Assembly: GCF_001984155.1 (NCBI RefSeq)
Contig: NZ_MTQO01000044.1
Span: 248,001-312,000, forward strand
Source: Actinosynnema sp. ALI-1.44
Lineage (GTDB): Bacteria > Actinomycetota > Actinomycetes > Mycobacteriales > Pseudonocardiaceae
Length of the DNA stretch: 64,000 nt
Reading direction: 5' to 3'
Part shown: one piece after another, positions 22,979 to 32,299 of the stretch
Layout of the letters: each line of letters starts with the position of its first letter
How positions within the stretch are numbered: position 1 is the first letter of the stretch
The notes under the pieces: generated by a model
The model's input: the letters and a program-made list of their open reading frames with translations, nothing else
The model's database searches: none
Told to the model about the DNA's origin: nothing
Made by a program: the position numbers and the translations under genes

Positions 22979-23758
22979 TTAGAGCGTCGCTTCCCACGCG
23001 GTCACCGCGCCACCGGTCACCTGGTCGATCCAGGCCCGGTAGCCGGGGACGCTGTTGTACAGGCCGGGGCCGTTGAGGCAGTTGGCGCTGTTGTTGCCGG
23101 AACGGCTGGTGGCACCGGTCAGTTCACCGTTGAGGATGGACGGTCCACCCGAGTCGCCGTAGCACGCGCTGGTCCCGGGCGCGCCCTGGAAGCAGATCTC
23201 CTTGCCCGGCTTGAAACTGGCCGTGCACCGCGAGTCGGCGACCCTGGTGCTCTCCACTTCGCGCAACTGCGGTGACGAACCACCGCAGCCCGGGTTGCCA
23301 CAGGTCTGGCCGTGGCCGATCAGCGTGTTGACGCTGCCGACCGGCGGGTGGTTCGCCGCAATCCTGATCGGCTTCGACGTGGCCGCCCTCGACAGCCGCA
23401 CGACGGCGATGTCGTTCTGGCCGAGGGTGGCGCTGGCCGCGGTGATGACCTCGCCACCGGATCCGGTGTTGACCGAACCGATCCGTGCCGTGAACCCACC
23501 ACCGGTGGAGCCCTGGACACAGTGCTTGGCGGTGACGAGCCACTGCGGCGCGATCAGCGAAGCACCGCAGAAATGACGGCCACTTCGTTGCAGTGAAGCG
23601 AAGAAGGAGTACGGCGTGGTGACGACCCGGCCGCCGATGATGAACGGTTGGGCCTGCGGTTCAGCCTGCTGGACGGCCTGGGCCGGAGCACCCAGCCCCA
23701 GGCCGACCGTCGAGACGACGGCGGCTGCCGCGAGCATGGTCAGACGACGAATCCACAT
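22979..23758 (-). CDS. Secreted trypsin-like serine protease
   Basis: 259 residues with a signal peptide and short propeptide, then the mature start IIGG at about 40-43. The triad is H79 (TAKHCV), D116 (NDIAVV) and S203 (GDSGGP). Cysteines pair as in chymotrypsin-fold enzymes. The S1 region cannot be assigned with certainty. The ATG at 23758 is preceded by GTAGGAGG. It is an extracellular digestive protease of the S1 family, common in actinomycetes. Confidence 0.92.
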   Translation of the reverse strand: MWIRRLTMLAAAAVVSTVGLGLGAPAQAVQQAEPQAQPFIIGGRVVTTPYSFFASLQRSGRHFCGASLIAPQWLVTAKHCVQGSTGGGFTARIGSVNTGSGGEVITAASATLGQNDIAVVRLSRAATSKPIRIAANHPPVGSVNTLIGHGQTCGNPGCGGSSPQLREVESTRVADSRCTASFKPGKEICFQGAPGTSACYGDSGGPSILNGELTGATSRSGNNSANCLNGPGLYNSVPGYRAWIDQVTGGAVTAWEATL

Positions 23759-24258
23759 TGTTGCTTCGAACCTCCTACAGAGCAGGGGTGTCCGGCAGGT
23801 CGGACATCTGTAGTGCGGTAACAATCGACACCTGACCGTAGTGGGCTGTAATGTGTCGTGGTACCCCCCGTTAGTACCAACCTCGTTGCAGTGGAAAATT
23901 TCCGGTACACAGCGTTTTCCGAGTAGGATTTGCGTAACGGCACTGCGACCGCCTGATACGTTTCCGTCACCGCATGCCGCTAACACCTGACGCCGTTCGT
24001 CGACTTTTTCCGTGTGACCTCGAAGCGAGCGATCGGCGACGATCTGATCGAGAGGAAGATCGACGCTGCCTTGGTGGGACGACGCCGTGTCGCAGGCAGC
24101 GGGCGAGGTCAGGCGCTGAGTCAGGGAGGACGGCCTGGGGTCCGGAACACGCGAGCAGTGGCTGCGGGAACCGGCGCGGTTTCAAGCCGTCCTTCGACGC
24201 GGCCACCGCCGTCGCCGACTACGTAAAATGGCGTACCGAGAATCCACGGTAGGACAGA
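23759..24258. other. Intergenic stretch with a possible epimerase tail
   Basis: About 500 bp upstream of the protease. The first 150 bp is AT-rich for this genome and likely holds the protease promoter. Near 24180-24252 the plus strand reads GFKPSFDAATAVADYVKW followed by RTENPR and a stop, which resembles the C-terminus of an NAD-dependent epimerase. No further homologous part is seen, so it is at most a scrap. Confidence 0.35.
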
Positions 24259-25494
24259 TCAGGTGACGCGGCCGGGCGCGTCACCCCACTGTTCGTAGGC
24301 GCGGCTCGCGAGCAGGTCACGCAACCGGTCCATGGCGTCCCAGACGTCGACAAAACGGGTGTACAACGGGGAAGGGCCGATACGCAGCCGGTTGGGCTCC
24401 CGGTAGTCGCAGATCACCCCGACGTGCCCGAGCGCCTGGCAGATCCGCCACGCGTCGGGGTGTTCCAGCGTCACATGCCCACCACGCCGGTCGGAGTCGA
24501 GCGGCGAAGCAACCCGCATCCCGGTCGGAGCGAGGTCGATCACGAACTCGCCGAGCCGCTTGCCCTTGTCCCGGATCCGCGCCACCCCGGCCTCCTCGAC
24601 GACCGCCAACGCCGGATCCACCGCGGCCAGGGACAGCACGGGCGGGGTGCCGACGAGGAACCGCTCGATCCCGTCGACCGGGTGGTAGTCCGTGCCCATC
24701 CGGAACTGGTCGCGTTGCCCGAACCACCCCCAGATCGGCTGCCGCAGCGTCGACCGCAGTTCCTTGCGGACGTAGAGGAACGCTGGTGCCCCCGGGCCGC
24801 CGTTGAGGTACTTGTACGTGCACCCGACGGCCAGATCAGCGCCGGAAGCGTGCAACTGGACGGGAAACACACCCGCGCTGTGCGAAAGATCCCACAGCAC
24901 CACCGCTCCAGCCCGTCGAGCCAACGCGTTCACCGCGGCCATGTCGTTCAACGCTCCCGAACGATACGACGCGTGGGACAGCACGACGAGCGCCACGTCG
25001 TCGTCGAGCGCGGCCGACAGCTCGTCGAGATCAAGTCCGGCATCCACATCAGACGGCAAAGCCCGCACCGACAGGCCGCGTTCGGCGGCGAGCCCCTGCA
25101 CGATGTAGCGGTCGGTCGGGAAATCCTCGGCGTCGAGCACGATCGTGCGCCGCTCCGGACTGCCCGCCAGCACAGCGGCCGCCAGCTTGTACAGGTTGAC
25201 CGACGTCGAGTCCGACAGCACGACTTCGCCAGGCCGGGCACCGAGAACGTGCTCAGCGAGCCGATCACCGAGCCGGCTCGCCCAGTCGATCCACGTGTGC
25301 CACGTCCGGACAAGCCCCGTGCCCCACTGGTCGCGCACCACCGCGTCGAGGAAATCCGCGGTGGCGGCGGGCAGCCGTCCGAGTGAGTTCCCGTCCAGGT
25401 AGACCAGGCCCGGGTCATCGATCACGAACCGGTCCCGCAGCCGCGCAAGGGGGTCGGCCGCGTCCAGTTCCTCCGCCATCCGACGCGTGATCAT
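24259..25494 (-). CDS. kynU: Kynureninase
   Basis: 411 residues of the aspartate-aminotransferase fold. The PLP lysine is K228 in VGCTYKYLNGGPG; other family marks are YLDGNSLGRLP near 32-42, DSTSVNLYK near 95-103, WDLSHSAG near 201-208 and IWGWFGQRDQF. It would cleave kynurenine or 3-hydroxykynurenine to anthranilate or 3-hydroxyanthranilate and alanine. The start is uncertain among ATGs at 25506, 25494 and 25479. It follows lpxC by 73 bp on the same strand. No kynA or kynB gene is nearby, so its link to tryptophan breakdown is not shown here. Confidence 0.9.
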   Translation of the reverse strand: MITRRMAEELDAADPLARLRDRFVIDDPGLVYLDGNSLGRLPAATADFLDAVVRDQWGTGLVRTWHTWIDWASRLGDRLAEHVLGARPGEVVLSDSTSVNLYKLAAAVLAGSPERRTIVLDAEDFPTDRYIVQGLAAERGLSVRALPSDVDAGLDLDELSAALDDDVALVVLSHASYRSGALNDMAAVNALARRAGAVVLWDLSHSAGVFPVQLHASGADLAVGCTYKYLNGGPGAPAFLYVRKELRSTLRQPIWGWFGQRDQFRMGTDYHPVDGIERFLVGTPPVLSLAAVDPALAVVEEAGVARIRDKGKRLGEFVIDLAPTGMRVASPLDSDRRGGHVTLEHPDAWRICQALGHVGVICDYREPNRLRIGPSPLYTRFVDVWDAMDRLRDLLASRAYEQWGDAPGRVT

Positions 25495-25567
25495 GCCGAC
25501 CAGCATGGCTGATCCGTCCCGGCAGTACCAGTCGGATGCGCCGAGAGCTCGAGTGTTCAGCCGGGTT

Positions 25568-26350
25568 CTAACCCGCGTAAACACTCACGAGCAGACCGGC
25601 CATCCGGACACCGGCTGTGTGCCCGCTTCGATGTGCCGTCACGTCAAGGCAGTGCGCGGGTATTCCGGACAGGTAGAGGTCCCCGACCAGGTCGAGCAGT
25701 TTGTGCCTGGCCGGTTCGTCCGGGTACCGGGGTTCGTTGCCGTATCCGTCGGGACCGATCAGCACGACGGACTCGATGTCGAGGCCCTGTCCCAGACCGC
25801 TCGCGAGCAGAGCCGTCACTTCGTGTGCGTGTGCGATGGTCCGTGCACGGGATATGCCGCTGATGTACTCATCCGACATCACGCACTGCACTGTTTGTGG
25901 GACACCGAAACATTCGTACGTGTAAGTCCAATGACCCGTGCCAGGCCGGACGCGGATCCAAGCGTCGCCGTCCTCGACGAAGAGCTCCCTGTCCGGCAGT
26001 ACCACGTCCTGGGGCGGGAGTTCGTCGACGTCTCCCAGTACCCCGACGAAGTCCGCCGCGCTGCCGTCCAGCGCGGGCAGTTCCGGGTAGGACAGTTCGA
26101 CCTCGGCATCGGTGATCTCCATGCCGGAGAACGCGCTCATGATGTGCTCGACCGTTGCCACGTCGCCGAGCGTGGTGTGCCTTGTGGTATCGGTGACCGC
26201 CTCCGGTGCCGCCGGTATCCGCGCTTCGCCGTGCCGGAAGGCGATACCGTTGTCCCCGGGGTGGACGGTCACTCGTACCGGGCGCCCCGAGTGCAGCCCC
26301 CTTCCGGTCAGTCGAACCGGTTTCGCCACTGTCCTGCGGGGCACCCTCAC
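25568..26350 (-). CDS. lpxC: UDP-3-O-acyl-N-acetylglucosamine deacetylase (LpxC)
   Basis: 260 residues, somewhat shorter than the usual 300. The N-terminal landmark TGRGLHSG is at 15-22. The active-site set is complete: E68-H69 in ATVEHIMSAF, ALDGSA at 94-99, SGISRART at 164-171, then H216-K217 and D220 in ARHKLLDLVGDL, and H244 in HRSGHT. In Gram-negatives it removes acetate from UDP-3-O-acyl-GlcNAc, the committed step of lipid A synthesis, with zinc. The GTG start overlaps the lpxD stop as GTGA. Finding an intact lpxC in an actinomycete is unexpected. Confidence 0.9.
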   Translation of the reverse strand: MRVPRRTVAKPVRLTGRGLHSGRPVRVTVHPGDNGIAFRHGEARIPAAPEAVTDTTRHTTLGDVATVEHIMSAFSGMEITDAEVELSYPELPALDGSAADFVGVLGDVDELPPQDVVLPDRELFVEDGDAWIRVRPGTGHWTYTYECFGVPQTVQCVMSDEYISGISRARTIAHAHEVTALLASGLGQGLDIESVVLIGPDGYGNEPRYPDEPARHKLLDLVGDLYLSGIPAHCLDVTAHRSGHTAGVRMAGLLVSVYAG

Positions 26351-27339
26351 TCGCCGCGCTCCAGCTTCTCGATCCGTTCGTGCAGGTGCGGCAGCCGGGC
26401 CACGATCCGCAGCCCCTCGGCCAGCGGGCGCGCGGGGACACCGTAGTACGCGCCGGGTTCCCGGATGTCCTTCGTCGTCAGCGTCCGCACCGCCAAGGAC
26501 ACGTCGTCCGCCACTGTCACGTGGTCCGCGACACCGGTCTGCCCCGCCATCGTCACCCTGTTGCCCAGCACGGCGCTCCCGGCGACGGCCGACTGACCGC
26601 AGATCACCGTGTGGTCGCCGATTCGCGTGTTGTGTCCGATCTGGACCAGGTTGTCGAGCTTCACCCCGTTGCCGAGTTCCGTCGCGCCCGCGGTGGCCCG
26701 ATCGACCGCGCTGCCCGCCCCGATCTCCACGTCGTCGCCGATCACGACACCCCCGACGTGGTCGACCTTCTGGTGCGCGTCGCCGTCCCACCGAAACCCG
26801 AATCCGTCGGCACCCAGCGTCACGTGGGCGTGCACGATGCATCGAACGCCGATCTCCACGTCCTGGTAGAGAACAACATGGGGATACAGCACGGTGTACT
26901 CACCGACGGTGCACCCCTCGCCCACGTAGCAGAACGGGAAAACCTGCGCGCCCGCGCCGATCCGCGCACCTCGCTCGACCACGACGTACGGCCCGACCGA
27001 CGCGGTGTCGTCCACTTCGGCCGACGCATCCACGACCGCGGTCGGGTGGACACCCGGCCGCGACGGCAGTGGTCGCCGGTACATCGTCAGGAACTTCTCA
27101 AACGCCACACGGGGTTCGTCCGCGACGAGGTGCGGCCGGTCGACCGCCACCCCGGGCGGCACGATCACCGCACCGGCCGTGTGCGCGGTCAACTGCCGCA
27201 GATACTTCTTGCCCTGGCAGAAAGTCAGGCCTTCCCGGTCGTCCGAATCGACGGGAACCGGCCTCGTCACCCGGAAATCCGGGCCGCTGCCGACCTCGGT
27301 ACCCAACAACCCGGCCAGCTCGGCCAACGACCAGCTCAT
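26347..27339 (-). CDS. lpxD: UDP-3-O-acylglucosamine N-acyltransferase (LpxD)
   Basis: 330 residues, normal length. The N-terminal uridine-binding domain is visible (GLTFCQGKKYLRQL then AGAVIVPPG at about 37-63), followed from about 97 by hexapeptide repeats of a left-handed beta-helix. The catalytic histidine is H236 in LVQIGHNTRIG, equivalent to E. coli H239, with the LGADGFGF motif near 175-182. It transfers an acyl chain from ACP to the 2-amino group after LpxC action. Its ATG overlaps the lpxA stop (ATGA) and its stop overlaps the lpxC start, so the three are coupled. Confidence 0.92.
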   Translation of the reverse strand: MSWSLAELAGLLGTEVGSGPDFRVTRPVPVDSDDREGLTFCQGKKYLRQLTAHTAGAVIVPPGVAVDRPHLVADEPRVAFEKFLTMYRRPLPSRPGVHPTAVVDASAEVDDTASVGPYVVVERGARIGAGAQVFPFCYVGEGCTVGEYTVLYPHVVLYQDVEIGVRCIVHAHVTLGADGFGFRWDGDAHQKVDHVGGVVIGDDVEIGAGSAVDRATAGATELGNGVKLDNLVQIGHNTRIGDHTVICGQSAVAGSAVLGNRVTMAGQTGVADHVTVADDVSLAVRTLTTKDIREPGAYYGVPARPLAEGLRIVARLPHLHERIEKLERGE

Positions 27340-28055
27340 GCACGCACCTCCCGGTAGAACGACGAGATCCCCCGCAACGACCGCTCGGCAACGAACTTCT
27401 TCAGCGTGCCGACCAGTTCCGTGCTGTCGTCGGGCTCCTCGCCCGCCCGTAATCGGTGGAACGCGGCCCGCAGCGCCGCGTACTCGTCACCGCGGATCCC
27501 GGCTCGGCGCAGGCCGATCACGTTGAGCGCGCGATGCGTGGCCGGATTGCCGTCCACAGCGCAGAACGGCAGCACGTCACGGGTCACCTTGGCCATCGCG
27601 CCAACCATTGCCCTGCTGCCGATCCGGACGTGCTGGTGCACTCCCGTCATACCTCCGATCACCGCATGATCGGCCACCGTCACGTGCCCGGCGAGCGCGG
27701 ACTGTTGGCAGACAACGACACTGTCGCCCACCCAGCAGTCGTGGCTGATGTGGGTCTGGCCCATGATGAGGCAGTCGGCGCCGATCCGGGTCGGCCGGGC
27801 CGGTGTGGTCGAACGGTGGATGATCGCACCTTCCCTGACCGCGGTGTTCCGGCCGATCTCCAGACATGTTCCACCAAGGGAGAACGACAGGACTTGCGGA
27901 TCGCCGCCGATCACCGCGTGCGCGTCGACCCGCACACCGGACGCCAGCCGAACCCCGGCGTGGATCACCGCATACGGTCCGACCTGGACGTCGTCGGCGA
28001 CATCAGCCTCATCGGACACAACAGCGGTTGGATGAATTCTCGGTGACTGGGTCAC
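27336..28055 (-). CDS. lpxA: UDP-N-acetylglucosamine acyltransferase (LpxA)
   Basis: 239 residues, slightly shorter than the usual 260. Hexapeptide repeats run from RIHPTAVV onwards; the family block IGGDPQVLSF..LEIGRNTAVREGAIIHRST is at about 49-82, and the catalytic histidine is H105 in THISHDCWVG (E. coli H125). The C-terminal helical domain (ALNVIGLRRAGI..) is present. It adds an acyl chain from ACP to the 3-OH of UDP-GlcNAc. The GTG start at 28055 stands 22 bp after the ICL/PEP-mutase gene. Acyl-chain length preference cannot be read safely from the sequence. Confidence 0.92.
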   Translation of the reverse strand: MTQSPRIHPTAVVSDEADVADDVQVGPYAVIHAGVRLASGVRVDAHAVIGGDPQVLSFSLGGTCLEIGRNTAVREGAIIHRSTTPARPTRIGADCLIMGQTHISHDCWVGDSVVVCQQSALAGHVTVADHAVIGGMTGVHQHVRIGSRAMVGAMAKVTRDVLPFCAVDGNPATHRALNVIGLRRAGIRGDEYAALRAAFHRLRAGEEPDDSTELVGTLKKFVAERSLRGISSFYREVRA

Positions 28056-28077: not shown

Positions 28078-28857
28078 TCAGTTGAGTTTGCGGGTATCGG
28101 CGGGCAAACCGCCACCCGCGTACACATCTTCGGCCAATTTGGCCAACGCGGTGAGCGCGACGTTCTGGCTCCACGGACCGTAGGAAACCCGGGACACGCC
28201 GAGCCGCCGCGCCTCGGCCAGCGGGATCGAGCCCGGAATGCCGATCAGGTTGACCTTGCGTTCCCCCAACGCCTCCACCAGCCGCTCGACCTGACCGACA
28301 TCGAGCTTGCCCGGTACGAAGACGTTCGACGCTCCCGCGTCAAGGTAGGCGCGACCACGCGCAATCGCTTCGGTGAGCACGTCTTCGGGGTCCCGGCCCG
28401 GCGACCTGATGAACGCGTCCGTGCGCGCGTTGAGCACGAAGTCGACACCGGCGGACTGTGCGGCGGCGACCGCCGCCTCGACCGCCCGCACCGACTCGTC
28501 GAGCGGCTTCATCTGGTCCTCGAGGTTGCACCCCACGGCGCCGACGTCGATGGCCCTGGCGACGGTGCCGCCCGGGTCGCCGTAACCGGCCTCGAGGTCC
28601 GCCGTCACCGGCAGGTCCCCGGCCACCCGCACGATCAGGGCGACCTCGGCGATCATCTCGTCACGGGGGATCTTCTCGCCGTCCGGGTAGCCGCGGGAGG
28701 CCGCGATGCCGTGGCTCGGGGTGGCCAAGGCGTGTGTGCCGGGTGTCTCGGCGACGACCTTGGCGGTGATGGCGTCCCAGACGTTCACCACGAGCAGCAG
28801 TTCCGGCGCGGCGTGCAACTCCTGCAAGCGCGTCGCCTTGTCAGCAGTGGAGATCAT
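28078..28857 (-). CDS. Isocitrate lyase/PEP mutase superfamily enzyme
   Basis: 259 residues of the ICL/PEPM TIM barrel: VNVWDAITAKVVAE, ALATPSHGIAASRGYPDG, VTADLEAGYGD and VGCNLEDQ are the usual metal- and substrate-binding loops. The KKCGH loop of true isocitrate lyases is not present, so a C-C or P-C lyase acting on another 2-oxo or malate-type acid is likely. It may start the transcript that continues into lpxA, but a biochemical link is not evident. The ATG at 28857 is preferred over a TTG at 28866. Confidence 0.82.
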   Translation of the reverse strand: MISTADKATRLQELHAAPELLLVVNVWDAITAKVVAETPGTHALATPSHGIAASRGYPDGEKIPRDEMIAEVALIVRVAGDLPVTADLEAGYGDPGGTVARAIDVGAVGCNLEDQMKPLDESVRAVEAAVAAAQSAGVDFVLNARTDAFIRSPGRDPEDVLTEAIARGRAYLDAGASNVFVPGKLDVGQVERLVEALGERKVNLIGIPGSIPLAEARRLGVSRVSYGPWSQNVALTALAKLAEDVYAGGGLPADTRKLN

Positions 28858-28903
28858 GTCCGCCAATGTACGAGAGGTTCCCGGCTGCCGCGCGCCCGGA
28901 CCA

Positions 28904-30982: not shown

Positions 30983-31111
30983 GACGGCCTGTTATGACGA
31001 GTTGGGATTGCCCCATACGCCCACGCGCTGGACAACCTCACACGTGTAGGACAGGAACCCCTGCCGCCGGTGCTCCATGCCGGTGTCCCGTCCAACACGA
31101 AGGAGTCTGTG

Positions 31112-32299
31112 GTGCCCATTCGACGAGGGCTCGGGTTGCTGGCTGCCGCTGGTCTGCTGGTGGCCGGGATCGCCGCGGCCAATCCGCCGTCCGCCGAAGC
31201 GGACGTGGCCGCGGTGCCACCCGCCGAGCTCAATTCCGGCGTGACCAGGGCCGGGACAGCTGTTCCCATCGACATGGCGTTGACCTATGGCGGTTCACGG
31301 CGAGCGGAGATCCGGGCGCCCGGGTCTACGTACATCAAGGTGCATTTCGGTTCGTTCAAGCTCGCCCACGGCGACTACGTCACCGTGGCCAGCCCCGATC
31401 GACGTGAAGTGCACACCTACTTCGGTGAGGACGCCCGCGGCTCCGCCTTCACCAAACACGGCGGGTCCGGCTTCGCGGCGATGTCCGTCGACGGTGACAC
31501 CGCGATCGTGACTCTGCACGCCACCGGCTCACGAAACCCCGCTCGGCTCGGCGTCCGGATCAACCAGTACTTCCGCGGCTACGACACGGCCGAAACCGCC
31601 GCGCACAACCCCGGCACCCTCAGCGTGTGCGGGACCGATGCGCGTCGGGACGTCGCCTGCTACCAGACCAGCCATCCGACCGAGTACACCCGTGCCAACG
31701 CCGTCGCACGGCAGTTGCTCAACGGCATCGGCCACTGCACCGCGTGGCGTGTCGGGAACACCAACAGGATGCTGACCAACCAGCACTGCATGGAGAACGC
31801 GTCCGACCTGCGGGCCAGCGAGTTCCAGTTCGACTACCAGTGCGCCACCTGCGGCGGCAACAACCCGCGCACGGGCACGAAGGTCAGCGGCCTCGAACTG
31901 ATCAAGATCAGTGGGCTCAACCAACTCGACTACGCGCTGTTCAGCGTGAACAACTTCGACCGCGTCCAGTCGTTCGGCACGCTGTACCTCGAGACCAGGG
32001 AGTCCATCGCGGGCGAACGCATCTACATTCCCGGCCACGGGGACGTCAAGCCGAAACGGTTGTCCCTCTTCGAGGACAGCCAGGGCGGCGCCACGTGCAA
32101 GATCGACACGGTCTCCGCGGGCGTCAACACCGGCTACCGGTGCGACACGTCCGGCGGCAACTCGGGTTCGCCTGTTCTCGCCGCGTCCTCGCACAAGGTG
32201 ATCGCGTTGCACCACCTCGGCGGCTGCCCGAACTGGGGAACCCGGATCAAACTCGTGTACGACCAGATCAGGACCGACATCGACAACACCCCTCGATGA
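31112..32299 (+). CDS. Secreted chymotrypsin-fold serine protease
   Basis: 395 residues. A signal peptide covers about 1-30, then about 150 residues of beta-rich N-terminal domain (IRAPGSTYIKVHFGSFKLAHGDYVTV), then the protease domain. The triad is H225 (MLTNQHC), an aspartate in NQLDYALFSV and S351 (GNSGSP). The Cys-rich layout and the Ser motif resemble lysyl-endopeptidase-like actinobacterial proteases. The GTG at 31112 has AAGGAG upstream. It is followed by a LysR gene whose operator lies just after this stop. Confidence 0.87.
   Translation: MPIRRGLGLLAAAGLLVAGIAAANPPSAEADVAAVPPAELNSGVTRAGTAVPIDMALTYGGSRRAEIRAPGSTYIKVHFGSFKLAHGDYVTVASPDRREVHTYFGEDARGSAFTKHGGSGFAAMSVDGDTAIVTLHATGSRNPARLGVRINQYFRGYDTAETAAHNPGTLSVCGTDARRDVACYQTSHPTEYTRANAVARQLLNGIGHCTAWRVGNTNRMLTNQHCMENASDLRASEFQFDYQCATCGGNNPRTGTKVSGLELIKISGLNQLDYALFSVNNFDRVQSFGTLYLETRESIAGERIYIPGHGDVKPKRLSLFEDSQGGATCKIDTVSAGVNTGYRCDTSGGNSGSPVLAASSHKVIALHHLGGCPNWGTRIKLVYDQIRTDIDNTPR

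What the first reader, a model, noticed from the sequence alone, without database searches (positions are those of the whole stretch)
25568..28055. Complete lpxA-lpxD-lpxC operon in an actinomycete
Three consecutive, overlapping genes encode the first three enzymes of lipid A synthesis with all key residues intact (LpxA H105; LpxD H236; LpxC E68, H69, H216, D220, H244). This organism is by every other sign a Gram-positive without an outer membrane, and lpxB, lpxH, lpxK and kdtA are not in the window. The product would be UDP-2,3-diacylglucosamine, perhaps a precursor of an unknown glycolipid, an N-acylglucosamine natural product or a signal molecule.
Basis: partly seen in the sequence, partly recalled or inferred. 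Interest (0 to 1): 0.92.

Follow-up and report, generated by a model that had tools for sequence, protein, structure and literature searches.

The report
Orphan lipid A cassette in actinomycetes
A few soil actinomycetes, bacteria with no outer membrane, carry an intact three-gene set for the first steps of endotoxin (lipid A) synthesis but none of the later-step genes we looked for, so they probably make a sugar-lipid building block for some other, unknown purpose.

Summary
The host is a Kibdelosporangium (11.7 Mb). LpxC searches find the cassette in 5 of 390 Pseudonocardiaceae genomes (own included), decayed in a sixth, and in 1 of 38 Kribbella; a 394-genome class draw had only the window's own. 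Against 2-3 Gram-negative references the actinomycete proteins form one clade in each of three trees. Sites differ and no called neighbour is shared, except that the window and G005 share a site; there dS is like the flanks' and dN/dS is 0.20-0.28, so the cassette is resident and selected. LpxB, LpxI, LpxH and KdtA have no match over cut-off in 7 of 7 carrier genomes; LpxK, LpxG and outer-membrane genes were not tested. Best reading: an accessory, probably horizontally spread "front end" of the Raetz pathway making UDP-2,3-diacylglucosamine for a non-LPS product; the consuming enzyme is unknown. Cautions: LpxC scores below its equivalog cut-off, and this strain's LpxA has Val at E. coli Asp74. 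New variant of a known kind.

The parts
27336..28055 (-). lpxA: acyl-ACP--UDP-GlcNAc O-acyltransferase (239 aa, GTG start); one 18-residue hexapeptide coil and about 11 residues of the C-terminal domain fewer than E. coli LpxA; Val at E. coli D74
26347..27339 (-). lpxD: UDP-3-O-acyl-GlcN N-acyltransferase (330 aa, ATG start, ATGA overlap with lpxA stop); N-terminal LpxD domain plus hexapeptide repeat
25568..26350 (-). lpxC: Zn-dependent UDP-3-O-acyl-GlcNAc deacetylase (260 aa, GTG start, GTGA overlap with lpxD stop); complete zinc and acid/base set; below the NCBI equivalog cut-off
28078..28866 (-). upstream neighbour, PEP mutase/isocitrate lyase-like protein, 22 bases from lpxA; same neighbour in G005 only; not judged part of the cassette
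24259..25584 (-). downstream neighbour, kynureninase; longest reading frame overlaps the lpxC end by 17 bases, likely real start near 25506 or 25494; same neighbour in G005 only; not judged part of the cassette

Best explanation
The three genes are a compact accessory cassette, probably spread horizontally, encoding the first three steps of the Raetz (lipid A) pathway. LpxA puts an acyl chain from acyl-ACP on the 3-OH of UDP-GlcNAc; LpxC removes the N-acetyl group with its zinc site; LpxD puts a second acyl chain on the freed amine, giving UDP-2,3-diacyl-glucosamine. Shown: the genes, their order, intact catalytic residues, purifying selection, and no LpxB, LpxI, LpxH or KdtA over cut-off in the carriers. 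Inferred: the reactions themselves and the product. The product then cannot become lipid A by the known route. Because UDP-2,3-diacyl-GlcN is detergent-like and its pile-up is reported as toxic in A. baumannii (PMC4985137, passages), the actinomycete presumably consumes it by a glycosyltransferase or phosphatase encoded elsewhere, making a diacylated-glucosamine glycolipid or secreted natural product. That last step is a guess.
For: Near-full-length matches to curated LpxA, LpxD and LpxC models and to solved enzymes. Catalytic residues invariant: LpxC H19, E78, H79, T191, H238, K239, D242, D246, H265 in 6 of 6 intact copies; LpxA H122, H125, D126, H144, Q161 and R204 in 7 of 7; LpxD N233, H239 and H276 in 6 of 6 (E. 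coli numbering). Same A-D-C order in all 7 loci; no shared flanking gene among those called except between window and G005. dN/dS window vs G005 0.28, 0.20, 0.20 against 0.08-0.18 for three flanking genes; cassette dS 0.45-0.71 against flank dS 0.34-0.63; a neutral simulation leaves few frames open. No match over cut-off for LpxB, LpxI (48), KdtA (49), LpxH (55), 7 of 7 genomes each. Patchy distribution of LpxC: 6 of 390 Pseudonocardiaceae (one decayed), 1 of 38 Kribbella, 1 of 394 class (own), 3 of 396 phylum (own plus two genomes 79% and 85% complete).
Against: LpxC misses its equivalog cut-off (132 vs 187 bits) and LpxA one of two. LpxA K76 is S, G or A in 7 of 7, R205 is A or S in 7 of 7, and the window's D74 is V, so substrate or acyl donor could differ. 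One LpxB-family match exists in the window's genome just under the cut-off (20 of 22.6 bits, partial). No partner gene is known, so the end use is speculative. Constraint is moderate: dN/dS is 2.6-3.7 times that of the most constrained flank, and up to 0.55 in more distant pairs (range 0.19-0.55). Horizontal spread is inferred from patchiness and differing sites: the concatenated tree does not resolve it (AU p 0.365 for Pseudonocardiaceae as one clade), and GC3 is far from the neighbours only in G016.
Confidence: 0.68

Rival explanations
1. Repurposed enzymes: the three proteins keep Lpx chemistry (O-acylation, N-deacetylation, N-acylation) but act on another UDP-amino-sugar or another acyl donor, for example to make an N-acyl-sugar of a secondary metabolite.
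For: LpxC below its equivalog cut-off; substitutions at LpxA K76 and R205 in all 7 copies and D74 in the window; one hexapeptide coil lost in 6 of 7 LpxA and part of the C-terminal domain lost; long branch separating the clade.
Against: A complete A-D-C set makes most sense for a 2-N-acetyl sugar that is 3-acylated, deacetylated and N-acylated; the S. meliloti LpxA also lacks D74, K76 and R205; no polyketide or peptide synthetase was among the 36 neighbour proteins scanned with Pfam from the six intact loci (G144 neighbours not scanned).
Confidence: 0.18
2. A non-functional relic of gene transfer that happens still to be open.
For: Sparse distribution; a decayed copy exists in G144, where lpxD and lpxC are broken; window LpxA D74V; somewhat higher dN/dS than flanks.
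Against: Six of seven cassettes have all three frames open although dS between them is 0.4-1.8; under neutrality at 0.5 substitutions per site 5.2%, 0.2% and 4.3% of simulated A, D and C frames stay open; dN/dS 0.20-0.28 in the closest pair.
Confidence: 0.09
3. The organism makes lipid A or LPS by an unrecognised route.
For: First three enzymes present; one sub-threshold LpxB-family match (20 of 22.6 bits) in the window's genome.
Against: LpxB, LpxI, LpxH and KdtA have no match over cut-off in 7 of 7 carrier genomes. The same searches pass the cut-off in 4, 1, 1 and 3 of 14 control genomes. LpxC is in only 3 of 8 Kibdelosporangium, so it is not part of an envelope essential to the genus.
Confidence: 0.03
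4. Contaminating Gram-negative DNA in the assembly.
For: One LpxC in the genome, in a lineage where the gene is not expected.
Against: The cassette lies inside a 407 kb contig among genes of similar GC3, recurs in G002 and G005, which are single-contig genomes, and shares its site and dS with G005 flanks.
Confidence: 0.01

Closest known systems
Raetz pathway front end lpxA-lpxC-lpxD of Gram-negative bacteria
   Same: Same three enzyme families with the catalytic residues kept; presumably the same three reactions.
   Different: No fabZ in the cassette and no LpxB over cut-off in the genome; strict A-D-C three-gene order; host lineage has no outer membrane (recalled); LpxC and LpxA only 31-39% identical to the listed relatives in plasmid records (30 of 66 and 30 of 54 records listed; LpxD not searched).
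lpxABCD of diderm Firmicutes (Negativicutes, Halanaerobiales)
   Same: Lpx genes in a nominally Gram-positive phylum, clustered.
   Different: There the set lpxACDIBK/waaM/waaA/kdsABCD is present and an outer membrane exists (PMC5007114, passages read); here the later genes tested are missing. [quoted passage not shown]
Bacteria with only LpxA, LpxC, LpxD and LpxB (Cyanobacteria, Dictyoglomi)
   Same: Truncated lipid A pathway (PMC3087551, passages read).
   Different: Those keep lpxB and so could make the disaccharide; the actinomycetes stop one enzyme earlier.
Plant lpx genes (Arabidopsis; recalled, not read)
   Same: Lpx enzymes in cells that make no LPS.
   Different: Plants are recalled to keep later steps such as lpxB, lpxK and kdtA; here LpxB and KdtA were searched for and not found over cut-off.

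Membership tests
LpxA (UDP-GlcNAc O-acyltransferase) | Curated equivalog score | tested here: inconclusive
   235.3 bits vs cut-off 226 (NF003657) met; 220.3 vs 231.05 (TIGR01852) not met
LpxA (UDP-GlcNAc O-acyltransferase) | Catalytic His125 with Asp126, His144, Gln161 | tested here: met
   present in 7 of 7 actinomycete LpxA
LpxA (UDP-GlcNAc O-acyltransferase) | GlcNAc-pocket Asp74 and Lys76 (listed for E. coli in PMC7072397, passages read) | tested here: not met
   D74 is V in the window and D in 6 others; K76 is S, G or A in 7 of 7; the S. meliloti LpxA also differs at both (S, H), so this is not strictly defining
LpxD (UDP-3-O-acyl-GlcN N-acyltransferase) | Equivalog score and N-terminal LpxD domain | tested here: met
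   307.5 vs 242.5 (TIGR01853); PF04613 35.4 vs 30.8
LpxD (UDP-3-O-acyl-GlcN N-acyltransferase) | His239 and His276 | tested here: met
   6 of 6
LpxC (Zn deacetylase) | Pfam LpxC family and zinc/acid-base residues | tested here: met
   196.8 vs 27 (PF03331); H79, H238, D242, E78, H265 in 6 of 6
LpxC (Zn deacetylase) | Equivalog score TIGR00325 | tested here: not met
   132.2 vs 187.25; hence filed as a diverged LpxC-family member, not as an equivalog
Lipid A (Raetz) pathway | LpxB present | tested here: not met
   0 of 7 genomes over cut-off; one partial match of 20 bits (cut-off 22.6) in the window's genome, in a 435-aa frame beside P450-like and carbamoyltransferase-like frames, labels by eye
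Lipid A (Raetz) pathway | LpxH or LpxI present | tested here: not met
   0 of 7 for TIGR01854 and PF06230; LpxG not tested; the LpxH model passed its cut-off in 1 of the 3 controls in which it rang
Lipid A (Raetz) pathway | KdtA/WaaA present | tested here: not met
   0 of 7 for PF04413
Lipid A (Raetz) pathway | LpxK, Lpt/Bam, outer membrane | not tested
Lipid A (Raetz) pathway | Enzyme activity and acyl-chain identity | not testable with these tools
   needs enzymology or lipid mass spectrometry

The most novel reading that the evidence does not exclude
Some actinomycetes have taken the first three lipid A enzymes as a self-contained, transferable cassette and use UDP-2,3-diacylglucosamine as the activated donor for a non-LPS glycolipid or secreted natural product, made with an unidentified transferase encoded elsewhere: a use of the lipid A building block outside outer-membrane biology.
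Probability: 0.5. Interest if true: 0.85.

Novelty: new variant of a known kind. Interest (0 to 1): 0.72.

Why it matters
[quoted passage not shown] A conserved lpxA-D-C cassette under selection in monoderm actinomycetes would be the first sign, as far as my searches show, that the lipid A front end is used there for something else. [quoted passage not shown] banguiense DSM 46670, Kribbella sandramycini ATCC 39419) with mass-spectrometry methods for Raetz-pathway intermediates. It also warns against using lpx genes alone as a marker of an outer membrane.

Tried and rejected
Neighbour-gene route to function: all-against-all comparison of called neighbours in 7 loci (stretches of 16.7-27 kb) found no conserved partner. 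The gene calls came from a script that keeps frames with GC3 over 0.75, so the list is incomplete; it even missed some cassette genes (for example lpxC of the window). Trypsin-like proteases near the cassette in the window, G134 and G144 (37-43% identity) lie at different distances and orientations and are taken as coincidence. A GT4-type glycosyltransferase transcribed away from lpxA in G016 alone fits no equivalog; kept only as a lead.

Empty-site test: the best kynureninase matches in the five Kibdelosporangium without the cassette, and in G002, are only 49-54% identical and so look like other loci; no empty site could be shown.

LPS hypothesis: rejected. Contamination: rejected. The glucosamine phospholipids of actinomycete chemotaxonomy (recalled) were considered as the product, but LpxC in 3 of 8 Kibdelosporangium and 1 of 394 class genomes (own only) is too sparse for that.

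Phylum hits other than the cassette: G1045 carries what looks (by eye) like an LpxC-FabZ fusion followed by LpxA on a short contig of a 79% complete genome, so ordinary or foreign; G843 has an LpxC tail fused in frame to what looks like a sensor kinase, which looks like an assembly join.

Structure prediction was uninformative: LpxC mean pLDDT 43.9, LpxA 57.4, alignments of three rows; the LpxA model found nothing at E <= 0.001 in the PDB, not even solved LpxA, so these models count neither way. The LpxC model was not searched.

Donor of the cassette: plasmid records gave only distant relatives of LpxC and LpxA; viral contigs gave none for LpxC. The donor stays unknown; chromosomal Gram-negative collections were not searched beyond one scan of genome contigs with LpxC, which by its design finds close relatives only and gave two loci.
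Full report
What is there. On the minus strand of the window, lpxA (28055-27336), lpxD (27339-26347) and lpxC (26350-25568) follow one another with 4-base stop/start overlaps. The curated matches cover most of each model: LpxA 6e-70 to NF003657, LpxD 9e-92 to TIGR01853, LpxC 6e-58 to PF03331. LpxC falls below the equivalog cut-off TIGR00325 (132.2 of 187.25 bits) and LpxA below one of its two (220.3 of 231.05), so they are diverged members. Solved Gram-negative enzymes are the best matches in the PDB by sequence.

Active sites. Aligned with E. coli plus Paracoccus and/or S. meliloti enzymes (3 references for LpxA, 2 each for LpxD and LpxC), the nine functional LpxC positions (H19, E78, H79, T191, H238, K239, D242, D246, H265) are identical in 6 of 6 intact actinomycete LpxC; LpxA H122, H125, D126, H144, Q161, N198 and R204 in 7 of 7; LpxD D232, N233, H239, N240 and H276 in 6 of 6. 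Which positions matter is recalled except where a paper is cited. Differences: LpxC F192 is Ile in 5 of 6 and G210 is Leu in 6 of 6; LpxA K76 is Ser, Gly or Ala in 7 of 7, R205 is Ala or Ser in 7 of 7, and E. coli D74 is Val in the window alone. D74 lies in the GlcNAc pocket (PMC7072397, passages read), but the S. meliloti LpxA has Ser there. The acyl-ruler position G173 (role recalled) is Ala in 6 of 7 and Gly in G016. LpxA has one 18-residue coil fewer than E. coli in 6 of 7.

Who has it. LpxC by PF03331, own genome counted: 3 of 8 Kibdelosporangium; 6 of 390 Pseudonocardiaceae, of which 5 intact and one (G144) with lpxD and lpxC broken; 1 of 38 Kribbella; 1 of 394 genomes drawn from the class, the window's own; 3 of 396 drawn from the phylum, the window's own plus two fragmentary genomes (79% and 85% complete) whose LpxC looks like an LpxC-FabZ fusion and a join artefact. 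LpxA and LpxD were not searched genome-wide; they were found beside LpxC in all seven cassette loci.

One cassette, many sites. All seven loci have the order A-D-C. Apart from the window and G005, which share M14 peptidase and PEP mutase genes upstream and kynureninase downstream, no called neighbour is conserved; the calling script favours high-GC3 frames and is incomplete. Contexts named by Pfam for 36 neighbours are unrelated: for example a PaaX regulator in K. banguiense, a trypsin and an M15 peptidase in G134, DUF885 and a MarR regulator in Kribbella, a GT4 glycosyltransferase in G016. In each of the three protein trees the actinomycete sequences form a clade with 100% bootstrap against the 2-3 Gram-negative references. 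Inside, branching is unresolved and inconsistent: G016 is outermost in the LpxA and LpxD trees but joins G134 in the concatenated tree. AU tests reject neither Pseudonocardiaceae as one clade (p 0.365), nor Kibdelosporangium as one clade (0.337), nor all but G016 as one clade (0.161). Horizontal spread therefore rests on patchiness and differing sites, not on the tree. GC3 is near that of the neighbours in most hosts, with neighbours pre-filtered for high GC3; it is clearly low in G016 (lpxC 0.735, lpxA 0.784, lpxD 0.845 against 0.912, sd 0.061, n 10) and about 2 sd low for lpxC in G005 and the window.

Maintained by selection. For the window against G005, dN/dS is 0.28 (A), 0.20 (D) and 0.20 (C), against 0.16, 0.08 and 0.18 for M14, PEP mutase and kynureninase; cassette dS (0.45-0.71) is like flank dS (0.34-0.63), so the cassette was most likely at this site before these two species split. 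Over all pairs dN/dS runs from 0.19 to 0.55, a simple counting method that ignores codon bias. With 0.5 random substitutions per site, 5.2%, 0.2% and 4.3% of simulated A, D and C frames stay open. G144 shows that the cassette can decay when not kept.

What is missing. LpxB, LpxI, KdtA and LpxH have no match over cut-off in any of the 7 genomes, G144 included. The searches pass cut-off in 4, 1, 3 and 1 of 14 control genomes. The one near miss is a partial 20-bit LpxB match (cut-off 22.6) in the window's genome, in a glycosyltransferase-like frame. LpxK, LpxG, Bam and Lpt were not tested. The known pathway therefore stops at UDP-2,3-diacyl-GlcN, as far as tested.

How it probably works. The three enzymes should convert UDP-GlcNAc and two acyl-ACPs into UDP-2,3-diacyl-GlcN. 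This product is called detergent-like, and its accumulation accompanies growth arrest and inner-membrane defects, in LpxH-depleted A. baumannii (PMC4985137, passages read). A cell keeping the genes should therefore consume or export it. I propose an unknown transferase or phosphatase acting in trans, giving a diacyl-glucosamine lipid. This step is inferred only.

What is known. Antunes et al. [quoted passage not shown] Opiyo et al. 2010 (PMC3087551, passages read) found none of the enzymes in seven Gram-positive genomes. Literature searches with lpx and actinomycete terms showed no report of these genes in actinomycetes by title and abstract start, but the lists were capped: 20 of 57, 1 of 1 (46, not opened), 5 of 5 (54), 15 of 460 (60), 15 of 27 (61), 5 of 445 (81), 12 of 20 (82). 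The library lacks most subscription papers.

Verdict. It is a known set of enzymes in a truncated, displaced setting: a new variant of a known kind, with an unknown product.

Noticed in passing
G144:C1 about 4866900-4868700 (L013 8887-10705): A decayed copy of the cassette: lpxA open, lpxD broken and partly lost, lpxC with an internal stretch of about 90 residues missing.
   Followed up: partly
L011 11700-13097: In G016 a GT4-type glycosyltransferase of no named equivalog starts right beside lpxA on the other strand; the only glycosyltransferase among the 36 neighbours scanned.
   Followed up: partly
L018 766-1713: In-frame joining of what looks like a sensor histidine kinase to an LpxC tail in a fragmentary actinobacterial genome (G843); looks like an assembly join.
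   Followed up: no
L019, L020 (NZ_AP023206.1): A 404 kb record labelled an E. coli plasmid carries ftsZ, lpxC, bamA, lpxD, lpxA, lpxB and dnaE, normally chromosomal genes.
   Followed up: no
window 22979-23986, 31070-32299: Two trypsin-like protease genes within about 3 kb of the cassette; relatives of the first (37-43% identity among the three) also lie near the cassettes of G134 and G144, at different distances and orientations.
   Followed up: partly
L015 1288-2595: The only sub-threshold LpxB-family match in the window's genome is in a 435-aa glycosyltransferase-like frame next to P450-like and carbamoyltransferase-like frames (labels by eye), perhaps a secondary-metabolite cluster.
   Followed up: no
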